Assembly (NCBI GenBank): GCA_022014155.1
Contig: JAKLLS010000004.1
Location: 1-63,623, forward strand
From: Marinobacter sp.
GTDB lineage: Bacteria; Pseudomonadota; Gammaproteobacteria; Pseudomonadales; Oleiphilaceae
Direction: 5' to 3'
DNA: 63,623 bases
Shown here: one piece after another, positions 37,111 through 55,405 of the stretch
Layout of the letters: each line of letters starts with the position of its first letter
Position numbering within the stretch: the first letter of the stretch is position 1
The notes under the pieces: model-generated
Told to the model about the DNA's origin: nothing
The model's input: the letters and a program-made list of their open reading frames with translations, nothing else
Database searches by the model: none
Program-made: the position numbers and the translations under genes

Positions 37111-38418
37111 TCACCCCTCACTCGTCAACCGCGCAACCACCGCCGCCAGATCCGTCATGCCTTTCTCCACCTGCTGAATGCCGCTGGCAACGCCAGATAT
37201 CTCGCCGGAACTGCGGCGGGACAGTTCGGACACCCCAGCCATACTGGAACGCAAAGACTCAATCAAATGGCTGTTCTTGCCCACCACTGCGGATATCTCT
37301 TCCAATGAATGGGCGGTTTTGGCCGCCAGTTGACGCACCTCGTCCGCGACCACCGCGAAGCCCCGGCCCATTTCGCCGGCACGGGCGGCTTCAATGGCTG
37401 CGTTCAACGCCAACAGATTGGTCTGTTCTGCCACGGTGCGGATGGTGCTGACGATGTTGCCAATCTGTTCGGCCTGGGCTTCCAGATCCCGACTCACTCC
37501 GGCGGCGCTGGACACTTCCGCCAGGGTGGACTCCGAGGTTTCCACAGCGACAGCAAGGGCACGGTTTGCCTCAGCAGCGATCTGTGACGTTTCTTCAGAT
37601 GTGGACGCTGCAACTTCAGCAGCCTCCCGGGCGTTGTTCACCCGGGCGGTGATGTCAGCGGCGAATTTGATCACCTTGTAGACCTGTCCGCCGGCATCCA
37701 CTACCGGGCTGTAAGTCGCCTCCAGCCAGATACTTCGCCCGCTTTTGTCCCTGCGTTCAAACTGACCGGAAAAATTCTCTCCCCGAGCCAGGCGGCTCCA
37801 GAAATCGGGGTTGTCGCGATAGAAGTCATCGAAACAGAACATCTTGTGATGCTGATGGAGGATTTCGTCTCTGCTGTAGCCGGTGGTGGTCAGAAAATTG
37901 TCATTGGCTTCCAGTATCTCACCATCTGGCGTGAACTTGATCACCGCCATATAGCGGTTAATCGCTTCCAGCATGGCGCTGTCATCCGCGACTTTATCCT
38001 GTGCCGCAGTGGCGTCACGAGCAATTTTGACGACCTTGCAAACCTGCCCGTCCTCACCTGTTACGGGGAAATAAGTGGCCTCCAGCCACACCCGGCTACC
38101 GTCTTTGGCGTAGCGGGGGAATATTCCCTGCTGCGAGATACCTCGCCCCAGATCATCCCAGAAGCGTTTGTATTCCGCGGATGAGGCATAACTGGAATCG
38201 CACAACAGACGGTGGTGCTTACCAGTCAGATCCTGGCGCTGGTAACCCACAACGGACAACAGGATATCGTTGGCCGACTCGACAATCCCGGAACGACTGA
38301 ATTCGATGTACCCGATCTGAGAGCTGATGGCATCCAGGATCTGCTTCATCCTGGTGTAGTCGTTCCGCGAAACTTCCAGCTGTTCCGTCAATTCTGCAAT
38401 GCGATGGCGACCGAACAT
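37111..38418 (-). CDS. soluble PAS-PAS chemoreceptor, BdlA-like
   Basis: 435 residues without membrane helices. Two PAS domains (about 25-135 and 145-260) share the repeated block [30 protein letters not shown] and [29 protein letters not shown] (each quoted only in part: [18 protein letters not shown]). An MCP signalling domain follows with [19 protein letters not shown] and [14 protein letters not shown]. The layout and length match BdlA of Pseudomonas aeruginosa (about 417 residues), which controls biofilm dispersal; functional equivalence is not established. The hairpin TGAGGGG-ACTCA-CCCCTCA at 37102-37120 overlaps its last codons and may be a weak terminator. Confidence 0.9.
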
Positions 38419-46185: not shown

Positions 46186-46890
46186 CTACCGTTCGGCATC
46201 CACCCGGAAAAAGCCCAGATCCTGCAATGGCAGCTCCAGAACCGAATCATCCAGAATGATGGGCACCGCACGTTTTTCAGGCGTGATAATCGCGGAGAAC
46301 CGGTTTTTTACCGGTGACTCGATATCCAGATTCAGGTTCAGGGACGTCAGCAACTCGGTATCCACCGACGGCCGGACCACCTGATTAATCGCCGCCAGCA
46401 CCTCCCCACTGTATTGCAAACGCACCATGGTTTCGACGGGTACGACCATATCCACCGGCAGCTCAAACCGCACGGGCAACACACCTCTGACCGGCAGTTC
46501 CGGCAGCCAGGAATAGATCATTCCAGTGTTGGCAGAGACTTCCAGATCCGTCTCAACGGTTAAGGTGTCGCGGTAGCGGATTTCCATACGCAGCGGCACC
46601 ATGGTGTCTAGCTCCAGCTGCGTACGGTACTGCCCCTTCAAGTGCAGCGGCAGCGCTTCGTGGCGGAAAGGCACGTTCACGTCCACCTGCCCCAGTATGG
46701 TAAGCTCGGCATTTTCTTCGGTGTGGGCATCGACCCTCAGTTCTGCTGGCAACCTCAACAGTGCGAACTGATCGGTCAGGGACACACCGATGATCACCCG
46801 GGTATACAGCATGAACCCACCCAGCAAACCAAGCGCAACGACGAGTACAAACAGCCAGCCATACAGAATCCAGCGTCCAAGAGCACTCAT
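46186..46890 (-). CDS. unknown single-pass membrane protein, beta-repeat
   Basis: 234 residues, not recognised. One N-terminal membrane helix (about 8-30, WLFVLVVALGLLGGFMLY) and a long domain, probably periplasmic. This domain has short strands of the form L-P-V-x-x-x-L-P-V, such as LPVRGVLPVRFELPVDMVVP and VNVPFRHEALPLHLKG. No cysteines, no catalytic-looking motif. Its start overlaps the stop of the following paralogous-looking gene (46887-47651) by ATGA, so the two are co-translated. Strand-rich repeats suggest a scaffold or lipid-facing surface (inference). Confidence 0.75.
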   Translation of the reverse strand: MSALGRWILYGWLFVLVVALGLLGGFMLYTRVIIGVSLTDQFALLRLPAELRVDAHTEENAELTILGQVDVNVPFRHEALPLHLKGQYRTQLELDTMVPLRMEIRYRDTLTVETDLEVSANTGMIYSWLPELPVRGVLPVRFELPVDMVVPVETMVRLQYSGEVLAAINQVVRPSVDTELLTSLNLNLDIESPVKNRFSAIITPEKRAVPIILDDSVLELPLQDLGFFRVDAER

Positions 46891-47651
46891 TGCCTTGGCT
46901 GCTCCGAGGGCGTGTCGTCGTAAGGATTTGGCTCCGATTCGTCTTGCGGCGACCAGGAAAGTCCAATTTCACGAATGGGAAGCTCCAGGTCCATCTCCGC
47001 CAGCAGGGCATCCGCAGGCTCAAGGATGGTGGCGTAGGCATTGATCCGCGACCGAACCGGCACAGACATCGCGGTTTTCAGTGGAATATCCGTGGCAATA
47101 TCCACTTTCAGGGGCACCTGGAGGGATTCCAGCAGTTCAACCTGAGCGGGTGCGGTGAACTTCAGATCCACCATCTGATCAATCTCGATCTCCTCGTCCA
47201 GAGGGATGATGGCCTTGACCGGCAGCTCGCCGCGCAACGGCAATTCAAACCATTTACCGAGCGCTTTGACTTCCACGTTACCGTCAACCGAAATCCGCTG
47301 ATTCAGTTCAATGTTCTGGCGCAATGGCACCACCATCTGTATCGGTACGGCGCTATCAAAAGTGACCGACACGTTCAGGGTGTCGCGAATCGGTAGGATC
47401 AGAGTCTGGTCGATGGGTACCGTCGTGGACAGCACGGTATCCAGCTCGATATCCAGACTGTCCAGAATATCGATCCCCACGGCCATGGGCTCGGGAATGG
47501 ACACTTTCGCCTGCTGGTCACGCAACAACAGCTCCGCCCCCAGATTCTTCCACAACCAATAGGCACCGGTCGCACCCAAAACGATGGCCAGGATCAGTAA
47601 TACCCCAGCAATGGCCAACCATGTCTTACGAACCGTAATCTGTACTGCCAT
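46887..47651 (-). CDS. unknown single-pass membrane protein, beta-repeat (related to neighbour)
   Basis: 254 residues, not recognised. Membrane helix at about 10-33 (LAIAGVLLILAIVLGATGAYWLW), then strand repeats such as VPIDQTLILPIRDTLNVSV, LPLRGELPVKAIIPLDEEI and VPLKVDIATDIPLKTAMSV. The last segment is acidic and Pro-rich (ESEPNPYDDTPSEQPRQ). Similar layout, strand motifs and a shared closing element (DLELPIREIGL here, VLELPLQDLGF in the neighbour) point to an old duplication. It is 24 bases downstream of the DUF445 gene. Confidence 0.75.
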   Translation of the reverse strand: MAVQITVRKTWLAIAGVLLILAIVLGATGAYWLWKNLGAELLLRDQQAKVSIPEPMAVGIDILDSLDIELDTVLSTTVPIDQTLILPIRDTLNVSVTFDSAVPIQMVVPLRQNIELNQRISVDGNVEVKALGKWFELPLRGELPVKAIIPLDEEIEIDQMVDLKFTAPAQVELLESLQVPLKVDIATDIPLKTAMSVPVRSRINAYATILEPADALLAEMDLELPIREIGLSWSPQDESEPNPYDDTPSEQPRQ

Positions 47652-47675
47652 AGCGGATTTCCTGAGCCAGCCTCG

Positions 47676-48899
47676 TTATCCGAACATGAAGGTAAGCTGG
47701 AATACCCCCACACACAAACCCAATACCGCACCGACCGCAATCAGTATCCACTCGTCCTGTTCGAACGCCGGTCTCAGCATGCCCTCGAACTCCGAGGGTT
47801 TGAGGCTCTGCAAACGGGTTGACAGTGTATGCTCCAGGTCCAGGGCTTCATCGGCATAATCTTCGATGTGTTTCAGCGTGGCCGGCAGCCGCTGAATCAG
47901 CCGTTTGACCGCACTGGATTTCATGTCGCGGTAGTTCTGGGTGCCCACGGCAAAGGTGACGAAAGGCTTGGCCAGGTTGGTCTGCTCGTCGACCGCACGC
48001 TGTACATGGCGTCCGATCATATCGAATACCTTGTCCGCGTAGGGTCCTTTCAGAATCCCCTCGATGATGTTGGACGGGGTGAGAACGTAAGAGGACACCA
48101 GACGACCGTAATCACTGGCCACTTCATTCTGACGCTTCATGAACAACCCCTGGATATTGAACGGGCCAATGCGCATCAGTTCTTTGGGGTTGAAGATCAT
48201 CTGCAGGGCAATGGCGTTGGTGGCATAGCCCACCAGCAAACCGAAGGCAGGCAACAACCAACCCTGCTGGAAGAACAGCCACACGCCCATCTGGACCAGA
48301 CCGAACAGCAAACCGAAGTACAACCCAGACCGGCCGATAAAGCGAAATTCAGCGGCACCCACTTCCTGGAAGATCTTGTTCAACAGAGCCTTGTCACGGC
48401 TCAGGTTGGTCACCACCATATCCTCAAGATCATACATCTGGGAGATGTTGATCTTGAGCTGGTTCATGATGTCATTGATCAGTTTGGGAGCGTCCCGCTT
48501 GACCCGCTTGTAGATCTGCCGTTTGACCATTTCCGGCAAGGATTCCCAGAGCTTCGGTTCATACTCCAGCATCACCTGGTCGACGATTTCCTCGATCATG
48601 CCGTTCAACGCCGGCTCCAGCGCATTGGCCACCTTGTCGGCGTCCAGGCGGGAGAAGATCTCTTCCTGAGTAATGAGATGGGTAGTGATGGTTTCCACCG
48701 AAATAGCCGCCATTTTCGCCGCACGCCGGGGAATGATGCCCTGCCAGCCCAGGAACGGAGGCTTACCCACAAACTCCAGCGGCTGGAACATCATCTTGAT
48801 GGCTATGACGTTGGTGACATAACCAACAACACCACTAATAACCGGCATCGACAGATACAGCCACAGGTTTGACACGAAGTCATTCACTACCGCTTCCAT
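47676..48899 (-). CDS. DUF445 family membrane protein
   Basis: 407-residue protein of the DUF445/YheB-type family, function unknown. Hydrophobic helices at about 12-35, 205-250 and the very C-terminus (about 385-405), with a charged helical domain between. Family marks: VGYVTNVIAIKMMFQPLEF near the N-terminus and the matching second copy LLVGYATNAIALQMIFNPKEL near residue 225, plus GWQGIIPRRAAKMA. The two copies of G-Y-x-T-N-x-I-A show an internal duplication. First or second gene of an unknown envelope operon. Confidence 0.88.
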   Translation of the reverse strand: MEAVVNDFVSNLWLYLSMPVISGVVGYVTNVIAIKMMFQPLEFVGKPPFLGWQGIIPRRAAKMAAISVETITTHLITQEEIFSRLDADKVANALEPALNGMIEEIVDQVMLEYEPKLWESLPEMVKRQIYKRVKRDAPKLINDIMNQLKINISQMYDLEDMVVTNLSRDKALLNKIFQEVGAAEFRFIGRSGLYFGLLFGLVQMGVWLFFQQGWLLPAFGLLVGYATNAIALQMIFNPKELMRIGPFNIQGLFMKRQNEVASDYGRLVSSYVLTPSNIIEGILKGPYADKVFDMIGRHVQRAVDEQTNLAKPFVTFAVGTQNYRDMKSSAVKRLIQRLPATLKHIEDYADEALDLEHTLSTRLQSLKPSEFEGMLRPAFEQDEWILIAVGAVLGLCVGVFQLTFMFG

Positions 48900-48919
48900 A
48901 CTCGCACTTCCAATCGTTT

Positions 48920-49678
48920 TTATTGTTGGTCTGTCGCACCCGCTGACTCGTCGCTCTCACGGCAGTCGAGGGTTTTTGACCAAAGGGTTTTACCGAGATC
49001 CGAAATCGAAAAGGACAGCCGCTGAAAGCGCACTTTCATACCCGCCTGACCTTCTATGTCCGCGGTCAGGGCTCGCACTGCCAGGCCGTTTTCAATGCTT
49101 TCATAGTTCTGCAACAAGGTCTTGAACGAAGGTCCGGCTTCCACCAATCCCAGTTGGATCAGGTGGCTCAGATAGTAAGGCGCCCATTGGCCAAGCATCA
49201 GTCCGGACTCCTGGGCTATCCGGCTCAGGTGCCCCCGTAGCCGATACACCGGCTTTCCCAGCCGACCAATCACGTCCATATGACACATGGCGTGGGGCTG
49301 CTCATCCGAGACCAATGCCAGTACCCGCAGTTCGTCAGGGACCAGCTGCTGCACGATGATCCGGATCAGGTCATCGGTAGCGGACTCTTTGGTCTGGTAA
49401 ATCGAACGGTGATGCAGATCTCTGAGAATGCCTGCGGTATCGGCGGTCACCAGGGTTGGCGTGATATCGTCAGAATGTCCATGGAACAAGCCATTACCAT
49501 CCAGCTTCTGTAGCCGATTTCTGAGCGCCAGAAGTAACTGGCTTTCAACCTCCGACGCAACGGCCGCAGCACGCTGAACGGGCGGTAACTCCCCGAGTGC
49601 GGACCGAAGGCGCAGGAGGGTTCGATTGCCCGGCACGGAAGGCACCGGTAATCCTGACGTTAGCTTTCGCTTGTCCAT
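48920..49678 (-). CDS. DUF4393/Abi-alpha-like protein
   Basis: 252 residues, no signal peptide. The central part (about 110-190: LVPDELRVLALVSDEQPHA ... APYYLSHLIQLGLVEAGP) has the pattern of DUF4393, also called Abi-alpha, a family named from an abortive-infection gene. The match is from memory and moderate. The N-terminus (LRSALGELPPVQRAAAVASE) resembles the N-terminus of the divergent protein at 50008 (LQALIGKLPAAQRNLASHC). It precedes the DUF445 gene by 20 bases, so it probably belongs to that operon. Confidence 0.6.
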   Translation of the reverse strand: MDKRKLTSGLPVPSVPGNRTLLRLRSALGELPPVQRAAAVASEVESQLLLALRNRLQKLDGNGLFHGHSDDITPTLVTADTAGILRDLHHRSIYQTKESATDDLIRIIVQQLVPDELRVLALVSDEQPHAMCHMDVIGRLGKPVYRLRGHLSRIAQESGLMLGQWAPYYLSHLIQLGLVEAGPSFKTLLQNYESIENGLAVRALTADIEGQAGMKVRFQRLSFSISDLGKTLWSKTLDCRESDESAGATDQQ

Positions 49679-49795
49679 TGCGCTCGCCTGACAATCTTAT
49701 TGTTGTGAATGCTGACAATTTTCGTGACATATGTCACATTTTTAAAATAAGGTTGCAAGAGCAAATTAACAAGAACAAACGTAAAAAGGCGCACA

Positions 49796-50002
49796 ATGAC
49801 ACCCTCAGCACAACTTTCCAGCGTTCTGGACACCCTGCCCGATGAGCTCGCGGAAGCCATAAGAAACAATGCCGAGACCTCATTGGCCACACATCGCCAG
49901 GAAACAGCAAGTGAGTTGGAGCAAGCTCGCCGCCGCCTGTCTCTACCATCGCGATTGGTATTCAACATGACCACTGGCAAAGATCATCAGACAAAGGAGT
50001 AG
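49796..50002 (+). CDS. small hypothetical protein, helical
   Basis: 68 residues, not recognised; predicted largely helical and charged (LPDELAEAIRNNAETSLATHRQ ... in part). Start ATG at 49796 without a strong ribosome-binding site. The stop overlaps the possible GTG start of the next gene by one base, which suggests co-translation. Divergent from the DUF4393-like gene across a 117-base AT-rich gap (49679-49795). Confidence 0.6.
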   Translation: MTPSAQLSSVLDTLPDELAEAIRNNAETSLATHRQETASELEQARRRLSLPSRLVFNMTTGKDHQTKE

Positions 50003-50007
50003 TGGCT

Positions 50008-51450
50008 GTGAAAACATCTTCTTTGCAGATGGTTGCCGAACTGGAAAAGTTACAGGCGCTCATTGGCAAACTCCCTGCGGCGCAGCGGAATCTGGCCAGT
50101 CATTGCCAGCCTGGCCAGATTCGTGAGGTCAGGGATGCCGTTCTCGATAACCTCCACAGTGACCAGGCATCGACCTTTCGACGCCTGAGCTGCCTGGTCA
50201 GGGCACTGTCCGCAAAACATGCCGCCAGACTTGCAACCGATTGTGGCCCGGTGATCGCCGCTCGCACCCTGCCCTTTGTGGAGCCCTTGAAAGTCGGCAA
50301 AATTGCCCGCCGGTTGTCTGTGGAATTCCTCGCCGACATCACCCTCAAGGCAGACCCACGGGCACTACGAACCCTGATCCGGCACATACCCACGGACCAG
50401 ATTGCGTCAGTGGCCGTCATCCTCATCGAACAGCAACAGTATGTTACTGCCGGGCAACTGGCCGATGCCTTGCCCTCCACCGCCATTCGCCAGGTCCTGA
50501 CGCTGATCGACGATGACGTGGCCTTGCTGCGCACGGTTTTCTACATGGACGAGCCGGAACAGCTCGGAGATATCATCCGCCTGGTCGACAATGAACGGCT
50601 CAATCGCATCATTCTGGCCGGCCTCGGCAACCGCGAGACCTGGCCCATCCTGATGTGGGTGATTGATCAGGTCGGACGGGACATCAAAAGTCGGATCACC
50701 AACCTGATCGTGGAACGTGACCCCGAAACCCTGAACGAACTGATCAACGTAGCGAACAGCCAGGCGCTTTGGGGGCCAATTCTCCGCTCTCTGGATACCA
50801 TCAAGGAACGTCACCAGCGATCGCTGGTGCATTTGCAGGCCCTGCGGGACGAGCAGGTTCTGGAAGGACTGATGAAAGCCGCTTACGACGAGGGACTGAT
50901 GGCCAATACCATCCCTCTCATCGAGACAATGAACGGCGATTTGCAGGCCTTTGTCGCCAAGGTCGGCCTGCGCCAGGGTGCCGATATTCTGGAGGCTTTC
51001 ATTCGCGACGCGGTCCGTCAGAACCATGCGGCGGTCATCCTCACCCTGCTGAGCAGAATGAGCGACGAAGAAGTCAAGGAACTGACCACCCTTGGCGTGT
51101 TCAACGATAACTTCATATTACAAGCCATCGTGTCGGCAGGCATCGCGACCGGACAGATCCGCTCACTGATCCGTTTTGCCCGGCGCCTGCCCGGCAAGGG
51201 CCAGGAATTGATAGCCAGCCTGCTGGCGGCCGATCACGGTGCCCTGCTGGAGCGACTGCTTAATCGCTCTGAACTGCTGGGGGACAGCGACTGGAACGAA
51301 CTGGTCAGCCTTATTGCAAAGATCCGGATACCGGATCAGGCCAGGGAAATTGCCGACGTCATCCGCTACCAGTCACGTCAGACCGCACGTGCACTGAAAG
51401 CCCATGCCGAGAACATGGGTTCGGACCTGTTCAAGACCCTGTTGAAATAA
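50008..51450 (+). CDS. large alpha-helical hypothetical protein
   Basis: About 480 residues, no membrane helix or signal peptide, not recognised. Start taken as GTG 50008, eight bases after GGAG; GTG at 50002 is possible. The protein is a run of helical hairpins of about 35-40 residues, with recurrent R/D-L-I-R and L-x-x-L-I patterns (ALRTLIRHIPTDQIASVAV, EQLGDIIRLVDNERLNRII, ETLNELINVANSQALWGPI). It looks like a HEAT- or MgtE-N-like solenoid, so a protein-binding role is likely (inference). Convergent with lutC, 4 bases apart. Confidence 0.7.
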   Translation: MKTSSLQMVAELEKLQALIGKLPAAQRNLASHCQPGQIREVRDAVLDNLHSDQASTFRRLSCLVRALSAKHAARLATDCGPVIAARTLPFVEPLKVGKIARRLSVEFLADITLKADPRALRTLIRHIPTDQIASVAVILIEQQQYVTAGQLADALPSTAIRQVLTLIDDDVALLRTVFYMDEPEQLGDIIRLVDNERLNRIILAGLGNRETWPILMWVIDQVGRDIKSRITNLIVERDPETLNELINVANSQALWGPILRSLDTIKERHQRSLVHLQALRDEQVLEGLMKAAYDEGLMANTIPLIETMNGDLQAFVAKVGLRQGADILEAFIRDAVRQNHAAVILTLLSRMSDEEVKELTTLGVFNDNFILQAIVSAGIATGQIRSLIRFARRLPGKGQELIASLLAADHGALLERLLNRSELLGDSDWNELVSLIAKIRIPDQAREIADVIRYQSRQTARALKAHAENMGSDLFKTLLK

Positions 51451-51454
51451 CCCT

Positions 51455-52126
51455 TCAAACGTCTTCAAGGATGAGGACAATCAGCTCCTTCGGCCCGTGG
51501 GCACCGTAGGCCAGCACCTGCTCGATATCCGCCGTCTTCGACGGGCCGGACACCAGCAACACATTGGTCGGCAGACCCGCAGACCAGTTCTGGGCCGTCA
51601 TCATGTCGTACCAGTTATCGTGAATCCCGCTGGCCTTGAGCAGGGCAATATGCACCGGCGGCACCAGGCTCATCAGCCTCGGTTCGTTCCGGTCTGGCCA
51701 CAACACCAACGAGCCCGTCGCGGCGATGCCGCCAGTGGTGCCCGTCAGGCTGGCCTGCACATCATTGAAAAGCCCCACTTTCCACTCCTCAATGGGACGG
51801 TCATAGACCCGCAATTCCGGCTTCCTCGTTCCATCCTTCCAGGCGCTCGCTAGCTGCCCGCCATGAGGCGTGGCCGGGGCATACAGCAGATTCGTGATCT
51901 CCCGCTTCGCCAGCAACTCCGCGACCAGCACCGGCCAGTCATTCTGTCGCGTCTGATGCACCTCGGTATGCACCGCTTCCATCAGTTCCCGTAACCGGGC
52001 AACCCGCTCTTCCGGAGGATAGCGCCAGGGGCCTGTCACCAGGGATTCGTCGAACTCGTCCGGGCGCGGCTTGGTGCCAGCCAGACTGGTTCTGAGCTTG
52101 TTGAGGATATTGGTACGAGCGCTCAT
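51455..52126 (-). CDS. lutC: L-lactate utilization protein LutC (LUD domain)
   Basis: 223-residue LUD-domain protein, third component of the LutABC iron-sulfur L-lactate oxidation complex. Ends with the typical NVLLVSGPSKTADIEQVLAYGAHGPKEL. Its ATG overlaps the lutB stop (ATGA). The active-site details of LUD proteins are not known. Confidence 0.92.
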   Translation of the reverse strand: MSARTNILNKLRTSLAGTKPRPDEFDESLVTGPWRYPPEERVARLRELMEAVHTEVHQTRQNDWPVLVAELLAKREITNLLYAPATPHGGQLASAWKDGTRKPELRVYDRPIEEWKVGLFNDVQASLTGTTGGIAATGSLVLWPDRNEPRLMSLVPPVHIALLKASGIHDNWYDMMTAQNWSAGLPTNVLLVSGPSKTADIEQVLAYGAHGPKELIVLILEDV

Positions 52127-53583
52127 AACCTCTCCCGCCGGATGGATGAATTTTTCAGGTGATCCCGGGCAAGGTCATGGAGGGAACGTGCAGCCGGTAC
52201 CGGCGCACTGTGGTTCTCGGTCCACGGGCCCGCTTTTTTGGGCGCAAGCGCCCTGAACCGGGTCGCCCCCCACAGGAATAGCTTATAAAAGGCCGGACGG
52301 GTGTTCAGCATGACCCAGGCGCGCCACATCAATAGCTCCTTGCGGGAGTACTTGCTGCCGGCCCCTTTCACTGATACCGGCTCATGCCCCGGAGCCTGAA
52401 CATTTTCCTGTCGCAGTCGCTGCAGCAACTCCGGAATGGGAATCTTCACCGGGCAGACTTCCCCGCAGGCACCGCACAGGGAAGACGCGCTGGGATGATC
52501 CGGCACCTTGTCGAGTCCCACCATATGGGGTGTGACAATCTTGCCAATCGGGCCCGGATAGACTTCCCCGTAGGTATGACCACCCACCCTGGTGTACACC
52601 GGGCAATGGTTCATACAGGCACCGCAACGAATGCAGTTCAGGGTCTGGCGCATCTGGGCGTCGGCAAACGCGCCGGTGCGGCCGTTATCCAGCAATACCA
52701 GGTGCACTTCTTCCGGGCCGTCCAGTTCATCGGGTTTGCGCGGACCGGAGATCAGGTTCACATAGGTGGTGATGGGCTGCCCCAGGGCCGAGCGGGTCAG
52801 CAGGGACACCAACGGCACTACGTCCCGCAGGTTGGATACCACTTTCTCGATCCCGGTTACGGCGATGTGGACCGGTGGCGAAGTAGTGCTCATGCGGCCG
52901 TTGCCCTCGTTTTCCACCAGCAACAGCGTGCCGGTTTCGGCGATGGCAAAGTTCACACCGGACACCCCCACATCCGCCTCCAGGAATTTACGTCGCAGGA
53001 TGCGCCGCCCGGTCTGGATCAGCTCATCCACATCTTCGGAGACGTGTTCGCCGAGCTTTTCGTTGAACAGCGCCGACACCTGACGGGCGTTCTTGTGAAT
53101 CGCCGGCATGATGATGTGGGACGGTTTCTCATTATCAAGCTGGACGATGTACTCGCCCATATCCGATTCCAGGCATTCAATATCACGGTCGGCGAGATAG
53201 TCGTTCATCTCCATCTCTTCACTGACCATGGATTTGCCCTTCACCACCTGGCGACCGTCGTGGGCTTCAATGAGGCCGTGAACAATCTCGTTGGCTTCCT
53301 CAACCGTCTCCGCCCAATGCACCTTGATACCATTGGCGGTCAGTCTGGTTTCCAGTTGCTCCAGCAGGTCCGGCAGGTTGGAGAGCGAACGCGCGCGAAT
53401 GTGGTTGCCCAACTCCCGCAGTCCTTCCCGCTCGTCTTCGTCACTGAACGCATCCGCCCGTTTGCGCATCAGCGAATCCATGGCAGTGCGGAAGTTGGAA
53501 CGCAACTGTGAGTCGGCCAGCGCTTCCCGGGCGCGGCCCTTGAAGTCACTGGCCAGCTCAGTCACTGGAATGCGCTGGTTCAT
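52123..53583 (-). CDS. lutB: L-lactate utilization iron-sulfur protein LutB
   Basis: 486 residues: LUD domain (about 60-290, GKSMVSEEMEMNDYL, GVNFAIAETGTLLLVENEGN) and a ferredoxin domain with two [4Fe-4S] motifs, CIRCGACMNHCPVYTRVGG (about 310) and SLCGACGEVCPVKIPIPEL (about 360). C-terminal DUF3390-like tail. Links electrons from lactate to the respiratory chain. ATGA overlap with lutA. Confidence 0.95.
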   Translation of the reverse strand: MNQRIPVTELASDFKGRAREALADSQLRSNFRTAMDSLMRKRADAFSDEDEREGLRELGNHIRARSLSNLPDLLEQLETRLTANGIKVHWAETVEEANEIVHGLIEAHDGRQVVKGKSMVSEEMEMNDYLADRDIECLESDMGEYIVQLDNEKPSHIIMPAIHKNARQVSALFNEKLGEHVSEDVDELIQTGRRILRRKFLEADVGVSGVNFAIAETGTLLLVENEGNGRMSTTSPPVHIAVTGIEKVVSNLRDVVPLVSLLTRSALGQPITTYVNLISGPRKPDELDGPEEVHLVLLDNGRTGAFADAQMRQTLNCIRCGACMNHCPVYTRVGGHTYGEVYPGPIGKIVTPHMVGLDKVPDHPSASSLCGACGEVCPVKIPIPELLQRLRQENVQAPGHEPVSVKGAGSKYSRKELLMWRAWVMLNTRPAFYKLFLWGATRFRALAPKKAGPWTENHSAPVPAARSLHDLARDHLKNSSIRRERL

Positions 53584-54413
53584 TGCTCACCTCCGGGTTG
53601 CCGTTCACCGCATCGCTCCCACAGGAAACTGGCAAGATGGCGACCACGGAAAGCCTGCTGTTGCTTCTCCAGGGCGCCATTAATATTCATCAGGCAACCG
53701 CAGTCGGCACTGATGGCCTCAGCCGCGCCGGATCCCCGCAGCGCCGTGGTCTTGTCCAGCACCATGGCGCCGGAGATATCCGGCATGCGCACGGAAAAGG
53801 TTCCCCCAAAACCACAGCACTCGCTCTCATGGTCGTGATCGATACGTTCGACGTTATCGAGTTGGGCCAGCAGTTCCCGCGCGTGCAGATGGGTATTCAT
53901 CTCCCGGCGGGCGGTGCAGGAGGTGTGCAGGGCAATCTTGTGTTTCTCACCCCGGTCAACAAGCTGAACCTTGCAAACCTTGAGCAGGAACTCCGTCAGC
54001 TCGAAGGTGCGCTCGGCCAGTTCCTCGGCACGCCTCAGATTGTCGGGTTCCTCCGCGAACAGTTCCTGATAGTGATGACGAAACATGCCGGCACAGGACC
54101 CCGACGGCACCACCACCGGACGGCCGTCATCCAAGAGATCCAGCTGTGCCAGGGCTACAGCCCTGGCCTCTTCCCGATAGCCGGACGTCCAGGCAGGCTG
54201 ACCACAACAACTTTGCTGTTGGGGAAAGTGCACTTGAATGCCCTGCTGTTCCAGCAAGCGGATAGCATCCAGCCCCGCCTCCGGGAAGAACAGGTCCACC
54301 ACGCAGGTACCGAACAGCGATACCTCTGCGGGCTTGTCAGGGTAGCGACGCTCCGGTTCCCGGGCGGGAGCTACCCGGGTAGCGTTCGGGGCTGCGTCAT
54401 AGAACAGCTCACT
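53580..54413 (-). CDS. lutA: L-lactate utilization protein LutA (CCG-domain)
   Basis: 277 residues from ATG 54413 (MSELFYDAAPNATRV), with GGAGGA upstream; the track start at 54467 lies inside an operator. Two cysteine-rich CCG domains: FPQQQSCCGQPAWTSG and ESECCGFGGTFSV, which hold Fe-S clusters in heterodisulfide-reductase-like proteins. The N-terminus is longer than usual by about 30 residues. First gene of lutABC. No lactate permease gene is present in the window. Confidence 0.94.
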   Translation of the reverse strand, partial: SELFYDAAPNATRVAPAREPERRYPDKPAEVSLFGTCVVDLFFPEAGLDAIRLLEQQGIQVHFPQQQSCCGQPAWTSGYREEARAVALAQLDLLDDGRPVVVPSGSCAGMFRHHYQELFAEEPDNLRRAEELAERTFELTEFLLKVCKVQLVDRGEKHKIALHTSCTARREMNTHLHARELLAQLDNVERIDHDHESECCGFGGTFSVRMPDISGAMVLDKTTALRGSGAAEAISADCGCLMNINGALEKQQQAFRGRHLASFLWERCGERQPGGEQ

Positions 54414-54452
54414 CATTGCTAAACGTCCTCCAGACGGGGTGAAGCCAGAGAT

Positions 54453-54469
54453 AATTGGTAATACCAATT
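54453..54469. promoter_or_regulatory. LldR-type operator O1
   Basis: Perfect palindrome AATTGGTA-A-TACCAATT; agrees with the LldR/LldR-like site AATTGGNNNTACCAATT known from E. coli (AATTGGCCCTACCAATT). It lies 40 bases upstream of lutA. Confidence 0.85.
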
Positions 54470-54532
54470 TACCGATGCAGTCTGATAAGATATGTGAGTT
54501 GTTTACGGGCTGTCAAAGCTAACTGCTAATCC

Positions 54533-54549
54533 ATTGGTCTGATAGCAAT
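54533..54549. promoter_or_regulatory. imperfect LldR-type operator
   Basis: ATTGGTCTGATAGCAAT, in which the right half-site is degenerate (AGCAAT in place of ACCAAT). It sits between the two clear operators. Confidence 0.45.
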
Positions 54550-54593
54550 GGTAGAACGCCGCCCAAATTCGTCAAATGAAAAGCCAATACAGC

Positions 54594-54608
54594 ATTGGTC
54601 AGACCAAT
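54594..54608. promoter_or_regulatory. LldR-type operator O2
   Basis: ATTGGTC-A-GACCAAT, a 15-base perfect palindrome, 20 bases before the regulator ATG. It fits autoregulation and, with O1 about 140 bases away, could form a DNA loop, as described for E. coli lldR. Confidence 0.8.
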
Positions 54609-54628
54609 AACTAAAACGTGGGAATAGA

Positions 54629-55405
54629 ATGGCTATCGGTCAGATTTCACCAAAGCGCCTTGCAGATACCATTGTCGAGCAGCTGGAAACCATGATTCTG
54701 GAAGGCACGCTGCAACCCGGGGAGCGATTACCAGCCGAGCGGGCACTGGCTGAGCAGTTCGGGGTTTCCCGCCCTTCCCTGCGGGAAGCTGTTCAGCGGC
54801 TCGCCGCCAAGGGGCTTCTGGTCAGTCGTCAGGGGGGTGGGCACTATGTGGCCGAAACACTCGGCTCCAGTTTCAGCGACCCGCTGATCGGGCTGCTGGA
54901 AAACCGCCCGGACGCCCACCGCGACCTGCTGGAGTTCCGCCGCACCCTGGAAGGTGACTGCGCTTATTACGCAGCTCAAAGAGCCACGGAAGTGGACAAG
55001 GCTAAACTCAGGGAAGCCTATGAAGCCCTGCAGGCCTGCTACAGCAATCGCAACAACCAGGATGTCCAGGCAGAGGGCGCCGCCGACGCCCGTTTCCACC
55101 TGGCCATCGCCGAAGCCAGCCACAATGTCATTCTGCTACACACCATTCGCGGGCTGTTCAACATGTTGAAGAACAGTGTCGTCAACAACATCGACGGTAT
55201 GTACTCGAAGACTGTGGAAACCCGCAACGGTCTATTGGAACAACATCAACAGTTATTCGAAGCCATCATAAAGGGACGGGCCGAGGAGGCACGTGAGATA
55301 GCCGGGCGGCATATCGAGTACGTGCAGGGCGTGCTGTCAGAACAGTTTGAAAGTCACCGCAGGCTCGAGCGCTCGCTTCGCAGGGACAAGCTGAGTCGCA
55401 ATTGA
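54629..55405 (+). CDS. lldR: GntR/FadR-type lactate-responsive regulator
   Basis: 258 residues. GntR winged helix (about 5-75: ETMILEGTLQPGERLPAER, FGVSRPSLREAVQRLAAKG) and an FCD effector domain (about 95-240) with the metal-binding His pair region ARFHLAIAEASHN and, near the end, GRHIEYVQG. Divergent from lutABC with palindromes matching LldR sites between. L-lactate would be the natural effector (family knowledge); PdhR-like alternatives are less likely given the context. Confidence 0.9.
   Translation: MAIGQISPKRLADTIVEQLETMILEGTLQPGERLPAERALAEQFGVSRPSLREAVQRLAAKGLLVSRQGGGHYVAETLGSSFSDPLIGLLENRPDAHRDLLEFRRTLEGDCAYYAAQRATEVDKAKLREAYEALQACYSNRNNQDVQAEGAADARFHLAIAEASHNVILLHTIRGLFNMLKNSVVNNIDGMYSKTVETRNGLLEQHQQLFEAIIKGRAEEAREIAGRHIEYVQGVLSEQFESHRRLERSLRRDKLSRN

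What the first reader, a model, noticed from the sequence alone, without database searches (positions are those of the whole stretch)
46186..51450. Six-gene block of unknown envelope and helical proteins
Two ATGA-coupled single-pass proteins with strand repeats, a DUF445 protein and a DUF4393/Abi-alpha-like protein run one way; two overlapping genes for helical proteins run the other from a 117-base gap. Tight packing and unknown families in all members suggest one functional unit, perhaps an envelope-linked stress or anti-phage system.
Basis: inference. Interest (0 to 1): 0.65.

Follow-up and report, generated by a model that had tools for sequence, protein, structure and literature searches.

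The report
Conserved DUF445–Abi-alpha membrane gene block
Six unstudied genes in a Marinobacter genome behave as one inherited unit under a shared, conserved switch, and their relatives occur mostly in bacteria that make storage oils and waxes, so an 'anti-phage' family protein in it probably has an everyday membrane or lipid job instead.

Summary
The six genes are real and laid out as described. The 'one unit' reading holds. In about 150 Marinobacteraceae genomes the g3-type DUF445 (g3) and the Abi_alpha protein (g4) occur in the same nine genomes, adjacent in all nine. The helical g6 is beside them in eight of these. The ninth, a plasmid copy in M. adhaerens, has a broken DUF445. g1 and g2 are paralogs found only in the Marinobacter core group. 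The divergent gap is almost invariant and carries a CRP/Vfr-type palindrome, kept in seven of eight carriers. Across 274 Gammaproteobacteria, DUF445 and Abi_alpha stay neighbours with gene order changed. All g6 carriers have a g3-like DUF445. DUF445 tracks the wax-ester/triacylglycerol synthase WS/DGAT (8 of 9 genomes, 0.56 expected). The anti-phage reading is weakened: Abi_alpha genes without DUF445 sit among known defence genes, while the DUF445-linked ones sit among housekeeping genes, and there is no phage hit. g6 is distantly MgtE_N/FliG_M-like. Best guess: a CRP-controlled inner-membrane module linked to neutral-lipid or acyl-chain handling. The unit is shown; the function is inferred.

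The parts
46186..46890 (-). g1: 234 aa, one N-terminal TM then beta-strand-rich extracytoplasmic part; paralog of g2
   Evidence: ORF; TM; 24% identity to g2, E 1e-16; kept beside g2 in L017-L020
46887..47651 (-). g2: 254 aa, same architecture as g1, ATGA-coupled to it
   Evidence: weak LEA_2-type matches in relatives (0.009); AlphaFold model unreliable (pLDDT 42.5)
47676..48899 (-). g3: DUF445 protein, 407 aa, internally duplicated, four hydrophobic segments; the hub of the module
   Evidence: PF04286 3.4e-21; halves align E 3e-10 and hhalign 98.7%; AlphaFold pLDDT 82.7
48920..49678 (-). g4: Abi_alpha-family soluble protein, 252 aa
   Evidence: PF14337 3.2e-16; PDB 3H35 ABO_0056 2.8e-17; PADLOC PDC-S47 1.9e-9
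49679..49795 (.). 117-bp divergent promoter region, nearly invariant among the close carriers
   Evidence: mean column identity 96% over five carriers, including L020 whose g4 and g6 are only about 75-77% identical
49723..49738 (.). CRP/Vfr-type palindrome CGTGACATATGTCACA
   Evidence: 9/10 of TGTGA-N6-TCACA, 10/10 in L021, 9/10 in L022 at the same place; only such match in the window
49796..50002 (+). g5: 68-aa small helical protein, overlaps g6
   Evidence: dN/dS 0.22-0.45; equivalents in L017-L023 and short ORFs before g6 relatives in L044 and L047
50002..51450 (+). g6: 482-aa soluble helical-repeat protein, distantly MgtE_N/FliG_M-like
   Evidence: no TM; 7 of 14 family members hit MgtE_N (best 5.2e-7), 2 hit FliG_M (4.7e-5)

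Best explanation
The block encodes one co-regulated membrane module. SHOWN: g3 (DUF445) and g4 (Abi_alpha) are an obligate pair in the family sampled. g5-g6 is its partner transcription unit, divergently placed across a conserved region with a CRP/Vfr-type site. g1-g2 is a lineage-specific add-on. SHOWN BY CORRELATION: genomes with a g3-like DUF445 are overwhelmingly those that can make wax esters or triacylglycerols. INFERRED: the four-helix DUF445 protein forms an inner-membrane platform. g4, g5 and the MgtE_N/FliG-like g6 dock on its cytoplasmic side and regulate or scaffold it. Where present, the g1/g2 strand-rich arms reach into the periplasm. The job would be to handle neutral lipid or acyl chains at the inner membrane (storage-body formation, traffic, or protecting membrane integrity when acyl load changes), switched by carbon status through CRP/Vfr.
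For: Co-distribution and adjacency in the family: g4 in 9/151 genomes, g3-clade DUF445 in the same 9, g6 full length in 8 of these, kept at four different chromosomal settings. Outside the family: DUF445 beside Abi_alpha in L065, L066, L067 and L068 with order reversed in three. g6 carriers are all DUF445+ (6/6, p 1.5e-10; G451 added). A g6 relative lies 8 bp from a DUF445 gene in L100. WS/DGAT: 8 of 9 DUF445 genomes, 0.56 expected, p 3e-10, 5.6e-9 after collapsing to genera. Lipid genes beside some DUF445/Abi_alpha loci: patatin, phasin and WS/DGAT in L107; a NAD_binding_4 + adh_short fatty acyl-reductase-type protein in L108; AMP-binding in L066; ECH in L067. Shared CRP-type site. DUF445 model and TM count.
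Against: The g3-g4-g6 module is in only 9/151 Marinobacteraceae, although other DUF445 paralogs are in about 90%, so it is not required for storage-lipid synthesis. The WS/DGAT link is a genome-level correlation with no control for phylogeny beyond genus collapse and none for lifestyle (for example alkane use). G432 has DUF445 and g6 but no detected WS/DGAT. The window's own neighbours (Liv, ECH, Lut) differ between genomes. No structure match supports lipid binding (no hit at E <= 0.001).
Confidence: 0.4

Rival explanations
1. An abortive-infection (anti-phage) system: the Abi_alpha protein senses infection and, with the DUF445 membrane protein, permeabilises the membrane and lyses the cell early.
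For: g4 matches PF14337, the family of E. faecalis Abi-alpha, which causes premature lysis of infected cells (PMC6356687), and PADLOC candidate PDC-S47. Patchy distribution, 9/151.
Against: 75 neighbours of DUF445-linked loci hit PADLOC (first 25 families listed) mainly through housekeeping-type UvrD and TatD-like proteins, whereas neighbours of DUF445-free Abi_alpha genes hit SngABC, type I/II methyltransferases, BrxH and DruM. No phage record has a g4 relative. The linked and three of the four unlinked proteins are separated by a long, well-supported branch. The two-operon layout with a CRP-type site is unusual for a defence gene.
Confidence: 0.15
2. A general envelope- or membrane-stress module unrelated to storage lipid: DUF445 plus g1/g2 keep inner-membrane integrity and g4/g6 are its regulators. 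The WS/DGAT link reflects a shared marine, lipid-rich lifestyle or ancestry.
For: Three membrane proteins. Abi-alpha's known phenotype is a membrane/lysis effect (PMC6356687). MscS genes near g6 relatives in L044 and L045 (own reading of the sequence). Lipid neighbours are not uniform.
Against: The association with WS/DGAT holds across many families and after genus collapse, and the DUF445-free Abi_alpha genomes show 0/4 WS/DGAT.
Confidence: 0.3
3. Two independent units that merely sit together: DUF445-Abi_alpha on one side, g5-g6 on the other.
For: Outside Marinobacteraceae g6 relatives are mostly not adjacent to g3-g4, and a short form stands alone (L024).
Against: g6 presence implies DUF445 presence in all sampled genomes. 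Divergent layout kept down to 31% identity (L023). One conserved regulatory site between them.
Confidence: 0.1

Closest known systems
Abi_alpha (PF14337, formerly DUF4393), E. faecalis EF2833
   Same: g4 and all DUF445-linked relatives match the family (11/11)
   Different: Not in a prophage or defence neighbourhood; paired with DUF445; no infection phenotype known
ABO_0056 (PDB 3H35)
   Same: Solved homologue covering the conserved part of g4, E 2.8e-17
   Different: Function unknown; its own neighbourhood could not be checked here
DUF445 (PF04286) membrane proteins
   Same: g3 is a clear member with the duplicated GYxTN-type TM motif
   Different: g3 belongs to a clade largely linked to Abi_alpha, distinct from the 41-46% paralogs present in most Marinobacter
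MgtE_N / FliG middle domain
   Same: Half of the g6 family members give matches
   Different: g6 has no transporter or flagellar-motor domain; P0006 itself scores below the curated cut-off
WS/DGAT neutral-lipid synthesis loci
   Same: DUF445 tracks WS/DGAT genomes and lies next to one in G362
   Different: The block holds no lipid-synthesis enzyme

Membership tests
Abi_alpha abortive infection | PF14337 domain above curated cut-off | tested here: met
   60.4 bits against cut-off 29
Abi_alpha abortive infection | location in prophage or defence island | tested here: not met
   No phage hit; neighbours housekeeping, in contrast to unlinked Abi_alpha
Abi_alpha abortive infection | premature lysis and loss of phage yield on infection | not testable with these tools
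   needs phage assays
DUF445 (PF04286) | PF04286 above curated cut-off | tested here: met
   77 bits against 33.8
MgtE_N superhelix | PF03448 above curated cut-off for g6 | tested here: not met
   P0006 12.3 bits against 25.9; relatives up to 5.2e-7
Neutral-lipid (WS/DGAT) associated genes | genome co-occurrence with PF03007 | tested here: met
   8/9 for DUF445, 5/6 for g6; phylogeny not fully controlled
Neutral-lipid (WS/DGAT) associated genes | effect on wax ester/TAG content or lipid bodies | not testable with these tools
   needs mutants
LEA_2-like strand proteins (g1/g2) | PF03168 match | tested here: inconclusive
   4/12 members, best E 0.0094; AlphaFold model unusable
CRP/Vfr regulon | TGTGA-N6-TCACA site in the promoter region, kept across species | tested here: met
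   9-10 of 10 in 7 of 8 carriers; absent in L023; binding itself not testable here

The most novel reading that the evidence does not exclude
Abi_alpha proteins exist in a second, non-defence form: with DUF445 and an MgtE_N-like superhelix protein they make a membrane machine for storage-lipid or acyl-chain handling in oil-accumulating Gammaproteobacteria, and the phage-defence Abi_alpha is a lysis-triggering offshoot of that membrane role (or the reverse).
Probability: 0.25. Interest if true: 0.75.

Novelty: new variant of a known kind. Interest (0 to 1): 0.55.

Why it matters
It gives three uncharacterised families (DUF445, DUF445-linked Abi_alpha, g6) a shared, testable context, warns against calling every Abi_alpha gene anti-phage, and points to candidate new proteins of bacterial wax-ester/TAG biology.

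Tried and rejected
AlphaFold of g2 gave an unusable model (pLDDT 42.5). Foldseek of the DUF445 model against the PDB gave only weak hits to TTYH proteins (best E 4.5e-3, TM-score <= 0.24), not used. My first reading of some lipid neighbours (SCP2 in L100, lipase in L024, WS/DGAT-like in L025) was withdrawn because Pfam gave no match at 1e-5. The T6SS Tse3_N match of g6 is below cut-off and covers 53 residues, rejected. The anti-phage island idea was tested and disfavoured. Literature searches for DUF445, ABO_0056, PDC-S47 and yjiN found no function. g6 was not folded because the two structure jobs went to g2 and g3.

Full report
Observation. The six ORFs are at the stated places. From the divergent gap, g4-g3-g2-g1 run on the minus strand with gaps of 20, 24 and -4 bases, and g5-g6 run on the plus strand with a 1-base overlap; the gap is 117 bases. 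g3 is DUF445 and g4 Abi_alpha by Pfam. g1 and g2 are paralogs (24% identity, E 1e-16), each with one N-terminal TM. g5 is a real gene: its dN/dS among relatives is 0.22-0.45. g6 has no family of its own, but half of its wider family matches MgtE_N (best 5.2e-7) and two members match FliG_M, which indicates a soluble helical superhelix.

Is it one unit? The genome is a Marinobacter (named relatives). In samples of about 150 Marinobacteraceae genomes, g6 occurs full length in eight and as a stand-alone short relative in a ninth, G088. g4 occurs in nine. A g3-clade DUF445 (66-100% identity) occurs in exactly the nine g4 genomes; in the listed matches all others have only paralogs of 46% identity or less, or none. 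In all nine g3 and g4 are adjacent, and in eight g6 stands divergent to them with its small partner g5. The ninth is M. adhaerens plasmid pHP-187, where DUF445 is split into two overlapping ORFs and g6 is missing: a decaying copy. The block sits in at least four different chromosomal settings: beside Lut (window, L017, L018, L019); ParA-like/PAS-chemotaxis genes (L020); OmpA (L021, L022); gyrB/glyS (L023). g1-g2 are present beside the core only with the closely related versions (L017-L020), so they are an accessory pair.

Beyond the family, a sample of 274 Gammaproteobacteria gave PF14337 in eight genomes. In four (own, G248, G261, G393; five loci) the Abi_alpha gene lies directly beside a DUF445 gene, in either order. 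These four genomes also carry a g6 relative: elsewhere in the genome in G248, on another small contig in G261, and 8.5 kb away in G393. All six g6 genomes have a g3-like DUF445 (p 1.5e-10), and a more sensitive profile added G451, also DUF445-positive. In G432 a second g6 relative is 8 bp from a DUF445 gene. The tree puts Abi-linked DUF445s in one part of the family with two label changes.

Regulation. The 117-bp region has 96% mean column identity among five carriers, although in L020 the flanking g4 and g6 proteins are only 75-77% identical to the window's. It holds a perfect 14-base palindrome GTGACATATGTCAC that fits the CRP/Vfr consensus at 9 of 10 positions. L021 has 10 of 10 and L022 9 of 10 at the same place in otherwise diverged sequence; L023 lacks it. 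It is the only such match in the 63.6-kb window, but 2.4 are expected by chance with one mismatch, so conservation, not the match alone, is the evidence. That CRP or Vfr binds is inferred.

What does it do? Two tests bear on it. (1) Defence. Seventy-five proteins around DUF445-linked loci hit PADLOC mainly through UvrD-type helicases and TatD-like proteins of housekeeping type (only 25 of 47 families are listed). Thirty-one proteins around the four DUF445-free Abi_alpha genes hit SngABC, type I and II methyltransferases, BrxH and DruM. No phage record holds a g4 relative. Three of the four unlinked Abi_alpha proteins are split off by a long 100/99-supported branch; the fourth, a short divergent one, falls elsewhere. 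So the family name 'abortive infection' (E. faecalis EF2833, premature lysis, PMC6356687) should not be carried over to g4. (2) Lipids. WS/DGAT (PF03007), the wax-ester/TAG synthase, is over its cut-off in 17 of 274 genomes. g3-like DUF445 is in nine (two further genomes with only short, weak matches were not counted), and eight of those nine are WS/DGAT-positive (0.56 expected, p 3e-10; 5.6e-9 collapsed to genera). Linked Abi_alpha genomes are 4/4 positive, unlinked 0/4. In G362 WS/DGAT, a patatin and a phasin flank DUF445; in G261 a DUF445 follows a NAD_binding_4 + adh_short reductase and DUF2505; AMP-binding and ECH genes adjoin the pair in G393 and G248. The p-values assume independent genomes and are therefore optimistic.

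Mechanism (inferred). DUF445 is an internal duplication with four hydrophobic helices and long helices between them. g4, g5 and g6 lack TM segments and would act on its cytoplasmic face. g1 and g2 would extend outward. The most economical reading is a carbon-status-controlled membrane module for neutral-lipid or acyl-chain handling. A general membrane-integrity role is the main rival. The module is rare even among Marinobacter, so it modulates rather than makes storage lipid.

Noticed in passing
L042 8577-9798 (M. adhaerens HP15 plasmid pHP-187): Plasmid-borne g3-g4 pair in which DUF445 is split into two overlapping ORFs and g6 is absent; the record annotates 'Abi-alpha family protein' and 'DUF445 family protein'.
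   Followed up: partly
window 37111-38418 and L020 14482-15789: A PAS/chemotaxis-type protein that directly follows g1 in L020 has a near twin about 8 kb beyond g1 in the window, suggesting the Liv-ECH segment was inserted (or lost) beside the block.
   Followed up: no
L072, L070, L069, L071: DUF445-free Abi_alpha genes in other Gammaproteobacteria have neighbours matching SngABC (Shango), type I/II methyltransferase, BrxH and DruM models: genuine defence islands.
   Followed up: partly
L096 773-1315 (own genome C227) and L108 2657-3151: A DUF2505 gene lies near DUF445 paralogs in two unrelated genomes; another possible partner family.
   Followed up: no
L026 9088-9984, L025 9967-10779, L053 7621-8592: Distant stand-alone relatives of g1/g2: long runs of IP/VP-spaced strand repeats, no convincing Pfam family; an undescribed protein family.
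   Followed up: partly
L129 5998-7227: Acinetobacter baumannii carries a g3-like DUF445 (45.5% over its whole length) with no g4 or g6 nearby; the record is a 3.66-Mb sequence labelled 'plasmid' in PLSDB.
   Followed up: partly
window 51455-55405: LutCBA (lactate oxidation) operon and an LldR-type GntR regulator directly follow the block (own reading of the sequence).
   Followed up: no
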